NCBI GenBank assembly: GCA_017560945.1
Contig: JAFZDY010000006.1
Coordinates: forward strand, 1 to 32,336
Direction of reading: 5' to 3'
Length of the DNA stretch: 32,336 bases
Origin: Bacteroidaceae bacterium
GTDB taxonomy: Bacteria; Bacteroidota; Bacteroidia; Bacteroidales; Bacteroidaceae
The translations under genes were made by a program, and so were the position numbers. A model generated the notes under the pieces. It was not told the DNA's origin, searched no databases, and worked only from the letters and a program-made list of their open reading frames with translations. Positions 31,267-31,832 of the stretch are shown here, one piece after another. The first letter of the stretch is position 1; each line of letters begins with the position of its first letter.

Positions 31267-31385
31267 AGATATCCTTCTATGTAAATAGTCACTGAGCCTC
31301 CTTCGTATAGATCCAAATGTTCTATACGTTATCATTGGTGTACGATAATTCAAAATAGTTCTCCTCGCCACAGAACACGAAGAAA

Positions 31386-31423
31386 CTCCGTCCATCTGCA
31401 TTTGCAAACGCAAAGGGACGGAG
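31386..31423. repeat. Dispersed repeat, internally deleted copy
   Basis: CTCCGTCCATCTGCATTTG (the left end of the copy at 26467) is joined directly to the right-end sequence ending GGGACGGAG. CTCCGTCC (31386-31393) pairs with GGACGGAG (31416-31423). It is a 38-base version missing the middle, next to the end of the DUF697 gene. Confidence 0.65.
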
Positions 31424-31451
31424 GCGCACAAATATTTTCTCACCCTATTCT

Positions 31452-31482
31452 TTTGGCTAGTGAATGGAAATACATACCTTTG
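31452..31482 (+). promoter_or_regulatory. Consensus promoter with no gene downstream
   Basis: TTTG (31452-31455), exactly 19 bases, then TACCTTTG (31475-31482) is a full consensus promoter. No gene follows; a set of stem-loops does. Transcription should begin near 31489. Confidence 0.75.
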
Positions 31483-31488
31483 CCGTGC

Positions 31489-31694
31489 GTATTTAATCTT
31501 GTTTTAAAGTAATATGTTTTCATAGTTGTCAGTCCTTATGTCTGTGAAGATGGGAGGATGACTATTATTATTTTTTTAATTGTTTAATAAGGTTTGAAAT
31601 TCCTGTTTGTGAAAATGGGAATTTCTGTTATGGTAAATGATTGATTAATACACTGTCCCCTCCTGTTTGTGAAAAATGGGAGGGGGATTTTTGT
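31489..31694 (+). ncRNA. Candidate small RNA with three stem-loops sharing a loop motif
   Basis: Three hairpins follow the promoter. Hairpin 1 pairs 31528-31536 with 31555-31562 (one bulged base). Hairpin 2 pairs GAAATTCC (31596-31603) with GGAATTTC (31618-31625). Hairpin 3 pairs 31656-31663 with 31679-31686 and is followed by ATTTTTG, a terminator. All three carry the motif TGTYTGTGAARATGGGA in or beside the loop, at 31539, 31604 and 31664 (one extra A in the last). The stems differ in sequence yet still pair, which argues for selection on structure. No start codon opens a protein through the motif. The length of about 200 bases suits a regulatory RNA. The family is not recognised. Confidence 0.55.
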
Positions 31695-31728
31695 ATATAT
31701 ACCCCCCGACTTTATTCAGGTAACCCCT

Positions 31729-31832
31729 GTCCATCTGCATTTATAATGCGCTACAATCATGTTATTGCGTTTTGTTAGGCGCATTGAAAATACTCATACT
31801 CAACACTTTCGCGTTGCAAACACGAAGGGACG
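31729..31832. repeat. Dispersed nested-palindrome repeat, third copy
   Basis: This copy begins GTCCATCTGCATTTATAATG and ends with TTCGCGTTGCAAACACGAAG followed by GGGACG. The centre shares GTTATTGCGTTTT and ATACTCA with the copy at 26467. The left hairpin is lost: its loop is joined to the AGCATTTATAATGCGC phrase seen in the copy at 11355. Confidence 0.65.

What the first reader, a model, noticed from the sequence alone, without database searches (positions are those of the whole stretch)
31475..31694. Three-hairpin small RNA with a repeated loop motif behind a consensus promoter
A full Bacteroidetes promoter reads into about 200 bases with no gene. Three stem-loops each present a 17-base motif (TGTYTGTGAARATGGGA) in the loop while the paired arms differ and still match. 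The last hairpin has a T tract. Conserved loops on changing stems are the pattern expected of an RNA that binds a protein or a target RNA at several sites. I do not recognise the family.
Basis: partly seen in the sequence, partly recalled or inferred. Interest (0 to 1): 0.75.

Follow-up and report, generated by a model that had tools for sequence, protein, structure and literature searches.

The report
Three-hairpin small RNA, shared hairpin cap
A bacterium, probably of the Bacteroidota, appears to carry a small RNA gene that repeats one hairpin tip three times; the same tip, with an unusual fixed G-U pair, also caps single hairpins in related bacteria and in viral sequences, which suggests that something recognises it.

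Summary
The three hairpins, promoter and final T tract are real. The repeated 17-base motif is not a loop: it is the top of each stem, a fixed G·U wobble, three pairs and a GUGA (GNRA) tetraloop, and its Y and R pair with each other. Over 13 such hairpins in this assembly 96.8% of cells pair, 8 of 12 pairs show double changes, and the G·U is present 13 of 13 times. It looks like an RNA gene: a 91% duplicate from promoter to terminator lies on contig C54, three more tandem units on C48, only the + strand folds well, and there is no ORF. No Rfam family reaches threshold; it is neither FopS nor MasB, although MasB and a FopS copy in another genome carry the same cap. Clusters were seen in this assembly only (399 family genomes searched), but single caps recur across the family and in viral contigs. 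There G·U-closed cores are hairpins in 16 of 21 distinct cases, Watson-Crick-closed controls in 2 of 17 (p = 9e-5). Best reading: a multi-site small RNA displaying tandem copies of a cap read by an unidentified factor, the last copy doubling as terminator. Transcription and the factor are unproven.

The parts
31386..31423 (.). 38-nt palindrome just upstream of the unit; a diverged version lies at the same side of the C54 copy
   Evidence: (I1, arms 84% complementary)
31421..31722 (+). approximate extent of the duplicated unit; 31440-31720 is 91% identical to C54:66-349 (-), and similarity drops outside about 31421-31722
31452..31483 (+). Bacteroidota-type promoter TTTG-N19-TACCTTTGC; the spacer is also similar in the C54 unit and in C48 units 2 and 3
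31486..31524 (+). leader after the inferred start (about 31488-31491); 2 substitutions of 37 and 2 gaps against C54
   Evidence: start site inferred, not mapped
31528..31562 (+). hairpin 1; core GUCU-GUGA-AGAU at 31540-31551
31596..31625 (+). hairpin 2; core GUUU-GUGA-AAAU at 31605-31616; no strong T tract
31656..31686 (+). hairpin 3; same core with one extra A (5-nt loop) at 31665-31677; terminator stem
31688..31692 (+). T tract of the terminator

Best explanation
A small RNA gene of about 200 nt, made from its own promoter and ended by its third hairpin. It displays three copies of one hairpin cap: GNRA tetraloop, three pairs, fixed G·U wobble. The cap is most likely a docking site for an unidentified trans-acting factor, probably an RNA-binding protein (Bacteroides are reported to lack Hfq, ProQ and CsrA: passage in PMC12119571; not tested for this genome). 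By repeating the cap, and through five such units with 12 caps between them, the RNA would bind several copies of that factor and hold or titrate it, as CsrB-type RNAs do with CsrA (recalled). Shown: sequence, promoter match, covarying stems, duplication, fixed G·U, recurrence of the cap in other genomes and viral contigs. Inferred: transcription, the factor, titration.
For: Covariation over 13 hairpins: 96.8% of cells paired, 8 of 12 pairs with double changes, covariation score 0.700 against 0.253 shuffled; G·U 13 of 13. The 12-nt core is 90% identical between hairpins, the outer stems 47%. Only 6 of the 13 have a strong T tract (at least 6 T in 7; the other seven have 2-5), so the cap is also kept on hairpins that look poor as terminators. 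G·U-closed cores are hairpins in 16 of 21 distinct viral-contig cases, G-C-closed in 1 of 11, A-U-closed in 1 of 6. In 71 family genomes RTCTGTGAAGAY gives G..T 63 (5 of them own genome), G..C 33, A..T 33, A..C 21 of 150 matches (not filtered for hairpins). Terminator-like hairpins in 400 kb of a same-genus genome do not carry the cap: 0 of 81. MasB, an sRNA with a published structure, has the same 4-bp G·U/GUGA hairpin as an internal hairpin in its Rfam consensus, and a FopS gene in another genome carries the cap on its terminator.
Against: No transcript data. No binding partner known or searched for. Beyond the arrays the whole-assembly search found only the C45 cap at E < 0.01, and the 338-kb sample one GCAA variant near C48:30620, so obvious clients for a sponge are few; the assembly is 82% complete. 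Clusters were not seen in other genomes, and downstream of the 66-aa gene beside the C48 array 0 of 11 readable same-genus loci show the core, so the system is young or species-specific. The 13 hairpins are paralogues, not independent events. The UUU/AAA form, the window's commoner one, is not tied to hairpins elsewhere: 0 of 6 viral hits and 1 clear hairpin of 17 named-genome hits. Of 26 family loci inspected, 4 top model hits are closed by G-C or C-G instead of G·U.
Confidence: 0.45

Rival explanations
1. A base-pairing regulatory RNA of the FopS/MasB kind: the single-stranded leader and spacers pair with target mRNAs, and the hairpins only stabilise the RNA and end transcription.
For: The leader and spacer 1 are nearly unchanged between the two copies (2 of 37 and 1 of 30 substitutions), unlike spacer 2 (7 of 27). 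FopS and MasB are trans-acting sRNAs of Bacteroides thetaiotaomicron (passages), and MasB and one FopS copy share the cap. Weak matches to the FopS 5' region: C48 unit 1 leader p 0.013 or 0.058, window spacer 1 p 0.088 or 0.032, depending on the query.
Against: The window leader does not resemble the FopS seed (p 0.26 or 0.75). Leaders of the C48 units differ strongly from the window's while the cap stays fixed. A pure stabiliser would not need a fixed G·U.
Confidence: 0.3
2. A stack of intrinsic terminators: the cap is merely an efficient local terminator tip, copied by duplication.
For: 6 of 13 hairpins have a strong T tract. Most single caps inspected in relatives are terminator-like and follow genes.
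Against: 7 of 13 hairpins lack a strong T tract and keep the cap. Terminator-like hairpins in general do not use it (0 of 81 in G010). Each of the three C48 units has its own -7 element, odd for a stack meant to stop transcription.
Confidence: 0.17
3. A selfish or passively spreading palindromic repeat (REP/MITE-like) without cellular function.
For: Duplication of a unit of about 300 bp (91%) with a palindrome at one edge and, in the window, a 21-nt direct repeat on either side; clusters seen in one species only.
Against: Outer stems covary instead of being copied; units keep promoters and terminators; no transposase family among the 8 upstream window proteins scanned; the cap recurs on unrelated outer stems in other genomes.
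Confidence: 0.08

Closest known systems
MasB (BTnc201, RF04177), Bacteroides thetaiotaomicron sRNA
   Same: Its consensus holds GUCU-GUGA-AGAU as a 4-bp hairpin with the same G·U closure, not at the terminator; short intergenic sRNA.
   Different: 20.5 bits in the window and 28.3 in C48 against a gathering score of 105; one cap, not three; different outer stem, leader and terminator. Nearest Bacteroidota family by score, not a member.
FopS sRNAs (RF04319) and GibS (RF04182)
   Same: Multicopy Bacteroidota sRNAs with the same promoter type; a FopS in genome G129 (73.3 bits) ends in a hairpin with this very cap.
   Different: FopS has a fixed 5' seed and a single terminator hairpin; the window lacks the seed and has three hairpins. 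This assembly has separate FopS genes above the cut-off (7 listed).
CsrB/RsmZ-type sponge RNAs
   Same: Architecture: repeated hairpins with one conserved element on variable stems (recalled, not fetched).
   Different: Those display GGA in loops for CsrA (recalled); here the loops are GUGA, and CsrA is reported missing from Bacteroides (passage in PMC12119571).
GUCCY-hairpin motif (Weinberg 2010, PMC2864571)
   Same: A hairpin motif listed for Bacteroidetes and Proteobacteria (table row seen).

Membership tests
FopS (RF04319) | score at or above the gathering score of 56 bits | tested here: not met
   not among the 15 matches with E up to 10 at window 31485-31705; genes above the cut-off in this assembly lie elsewhere
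FopS (RF04319) | conserved 5' seed GUGUUUUUCAURGUAUUAGAUUUAAGGUUAA | tested here: not met
   local alignment of the leader no better than shuffles (p 0.26 and 0.75)
FopS (RF04319) | one terminator hairpin after a single-stranded 5' part | tested here: not met
   three hairpins
FopS (RF04319) | association with RbpB | not testable with these tools
   needs CLIP or EMSA
MasB/BTnc201 (RF04177) | gathering score 105 bits | tested here: not met
   20.5 bits; 28.3 bits at C48
MasB/BTnc201 (RF04177) | internal hairpin GUCU-GUGA-AGAU | tested here: met
   aligned residue for residue with hairpin 1
CsrB/RsmZ sponge RNAs | GGA presented in hairpin loops (recalled definition) | tested here: not met
   loops are GUGA, or GUGAA in hairpin 3; GGA lies in the paired 3' arm
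CsrB/RsmZ sponge RNAs | CsrA in the genome | not tested
   no search made; absence from Bacteroides is from a passage of PMC12119571 only
REP elements | near-identical palindromes including the whole stem (recalled definition) | tested here: not met
   outer stems 47% identical with compensatory changes

The most novel reading that the evidence does not exclude
GUYU-GYGA-ARAU with its fixed G·U is a general RNA recognition cap of Bacteroidota and of their viruses (the host link of the viral contigs is inferred; only one contig was matched to a bacterial genome here), placed on sRNAs and mRNA 3' ends and read by an undiscovered RNA-binding protein, a counterpart of Hfq/ProQ. The five multi-cap RNAs of this species are a dedicated sponge for it.
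Probability: 0.25. Interest if true: 0.88.

Novelty: new variant of a known kind. Interest (0 to 1): 0.58.

Why it matters
[quoted passage not shown] A short hairpin cap with a stability-neutral but fixed G·U, found in sRNAs, after genes and in viral contigs, is a concrete bait for finding such a factor, and a natural RNA with three copies is an ideal ligand. If the cap turned out to be only a terminator tip, the unit would still be a new, apparently species-specific sRNA gene family with five members in one genome.

Tried and rejected
FopS membership: rejected on score, seed and architecture. MasB membership: rejected on score. Coding gene: rejected (one 16-codon frame; indels of 1 and 3 nt against C54). 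Generic terminator tip: a survey of 738 kb in two genomes found no general use of the cap (0 of 81 terminator-like hairpins in G010; in G000 6 of 85 with G·U plus GNRA, of which 5 are the arrays and C45, since that sample was chosen to include them). Link to susD: in the same genus 25 matches lie outside the own genome, 15 with the exact core; I searched the upstream frames of 13 of these and 7 follow susD by 63-101 nt, in four groups 42-51% identical to each other; the other six gave mannitol dehydrogenase twice, an iron-sulfur protein once and nothing three times. Among 10 upstream frames from more distant genomes none hits SusD_RagB and one is SusD-like_2, so I do not build the mechanism on it. 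Horizontal origin: only one weak hit each in phage records (23 nt, E 0.08) and plasmid records (53 nt at 79%, E 0.07); the promoter string is absent from viral contigs. Synteny at the window: its DUF697 neighbour was found in 1 of 14 other genus genomes, at 36% identity, so the window locus could not be compared.

Results against the reading: UUU/AAA core 0 of 6 hairpins in viral contigs; host loci found by the bare 12-mer are hairpins in 6 of 30 (shuffled mean 1.7, p 0.004), so many genomic matches are coding, one in the own genome included (C8:53546); of 26 family loci inspected 22 have the G·U (4 of these with a mismatch right under it) and 4 are closed by G-C or C-G, and the model itself favours G·U; C54 hairpin 2 has a substitution that shortens its stem; one of the 11 loci (L226) has a hairpin that fits the loose pattern but not the core. 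Left out of the test: the hits (9, selected for T tracts) and the hits (6, other core form). The G·U set used the patterns and did not include CTG..TAGG. Searches of more than 40 genomes used stricter filters and scored 16-21 candidates a genome, so weak clusters elsewhere could be missed.

Full report
What is there. The window is contig C3 of a 2.35-Mb, 57-contig assembly, 82% complete. Downstream of a DUF697 gene a Bacteroidota-type promoter (31452-31483; 3 such matches in the window, 0.20 expected) reads into about 200 bases with three stem-loops and a final T tract. The stretch folds far better than shuffles (z -6.07) and better than its opposite strand (-60.8 against -32.2 kcal/mol). Only one frame of 15 or more codons lies in it, 16 codons long. 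Rfam 15 has no match at gathering score anywhere in the window.

What the motif is. In each hairpin it is G-U-Y-U / GUGA / A-R-A-U: a GNRA tetraloop on three pairs closed by a G·U wobble, with Y and R paired to each other. Hairpin 3 has one extra A and so a five-base loop.

Relatives inside the genome. A 91% copy of 31440-31720 lies at C54:66-349 on the other strand; the similarity begins upstream of the promoter and ends just past the terminator, at about 31421 and 31722. C48:80370-80915 (-) holds three more tandem units, each with its own TANNTTTGC element, with one, three and two cap hairpins; the last of each has a T tract. A lone cap sits on a terminator at C45:32070-32112. Promoter spacers of the window, C54 and C48 units 2 and 3 are alike although the C48 leaders differ from the window's, which suggests common descent or a shared operator.

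Covariation. Aligned and counted, the 13 hairpins give 96.8% paired cells, 8 of 12 pairs with changes on both sides, 30 such cells (8.3 in shuffles) and a score of 0.700 (0.253 in shuffles; slid versions at most 0.349). The G·U pair is unchanged 13 of 13 times. The 12-nt core is 90% identical between hairpins, the outer stem 47%, the flanks 38%. Six of 13 have a strong T tract. The hairpins are paralogues, so these numbers are not independent events.

Relatives outside. A covariance model of the 13 finds matches in 12 of 15 genomes of the genus at E <= 0.01, 76 of 399 of the family at E <= 1e-4 and 15 of 295 of the order, own genome included each time. No other genome shows clustered hits in these listings; the two large searches used stricter filters. 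Of 26 family loci inspected 22 have the G·U cap and 4 another closing pair; the model favours G·U, so this is no test. Elsewhere the cap is single, mostly on terminator-like hairpins after genes, three times between tRNA genes (L096, L108, L110, all of genus g12 and perhaps one orthologous place), and once on the terminator of a true FopS sRNA (L093, 73.3 bits). Downstream of the 66-aa gene that borders the C48 array, 0 of 11 readable same-genus loci show the core (12 loci examined, one not readable), so the array is recent or local.

Is the cap special? Terminator-like hairpins in general do not carry it (0 of 81 in 400 kb of G010). The sharper test uses viral contigs. With the same inner stem and loop, G·U-closed cores are embedded in hairpins in 16 of 21 distinct cases, G-C-closed in 1 of 11 and A-U-closed in 1 of 6 (pooled p = 9e-5). 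Pairing was scored only at positions that the search patterns did not fix. A wobble that stem stability does not need is thus tied to hairpin context, which is what a recognised RNA element would show. Against this, the UUU/AAA form of the core was a hairpin in 0 of 6 viral hits, and of 30 host loci found by the bare 12-mer only 6 are hairpins (1.7 expected, p 0.004).

How it may work. Shown: anatomy, covariation, duplication, fixed G·U, recurrence. Inferred: that it is transcribed, that a trans factor reads the cap, and that three caps in one RNA (12 over five units) titrate that factor, as CsrB does with CsrA (recalled). The weak point is that this genome shows few other caps to be relieved by a sponge. 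The main rival is a base-pairing sRNA whose leader and first spacer act as seeds; these are well kept between the two copies, but the leader is not the FopS seed (p 0.26), and the first spacer resembles it only weakly (p 0.032 or 0.088).

Compared with the known. It is not FopS, MasB or a Csr-type RNA by the features tested. MasB is the closest: its Rfam consensus contains the identical GUCU-GUGA-AGAU hairpin, but the whole-model scores are far below threshold. Papers were seen only as search listings and found passages (PMC11697453, PMC10994844, PMC7366714, PMC12119571, PMC2864571). Searches for a described cap of this kind returned none that I recognised in the listings; preprints and most subscription journals are not covered, supplements could not be read, and the GUCCY-hairpin of 2010 could not be compared.

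Noticed in passing
L033, L034, L035, L036, L046, L052, L055 (same-genus genomes): Seven single caps lie 63-101 nt after the stop of susD genes from four groups (42-51% identity between groups); possibly a conserved hairpin after susD in that genus.
   Followed up: partly
L203:9860-10040 and the related L196 (viral contigs): Two cap hairpins 135 nt apart (124 in L196); in L203 each has a T tract and similar AT-rich sequence after it, downstream of large viral genes; looks like tandem small transcription units.
   Followed up: partly
L197 (viral contig), 2085 and 2368 (-): Two cap hairpins 283 nt apart; the first lies directly before a tRNA-Arg gene (2271-2345, -), recalling the caps between tRNA genes in L096, L108 and L110.
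   Followed up: partly
window 31383-31403 and 31722-31742: 21-nt direct repeat (86%) on either side of the sRNA unit; the upstream copy overlaps half of a 38-nt palindrome also present, diverged, beside the C54 copy. Possible duplication or insertion scar.
   Followed up: no
G000:C5:23-89 and C7:23-89, C41 (two), C44, C23, C4: Seven FopS genes above the Rfam cut-off, two of them at contig starts, as repeats that break the assembly would give; FopS was above the cut-off in 15 of 15 genomes of the genus.
   Followed up: partly
L100 (G360) and L279: The same cap hairpin lies in about 1 kb of identical sequence shared by a bacterial genome and a contig of the viral collection, so probably a provirus or other mobile element.
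   Followed up: partly
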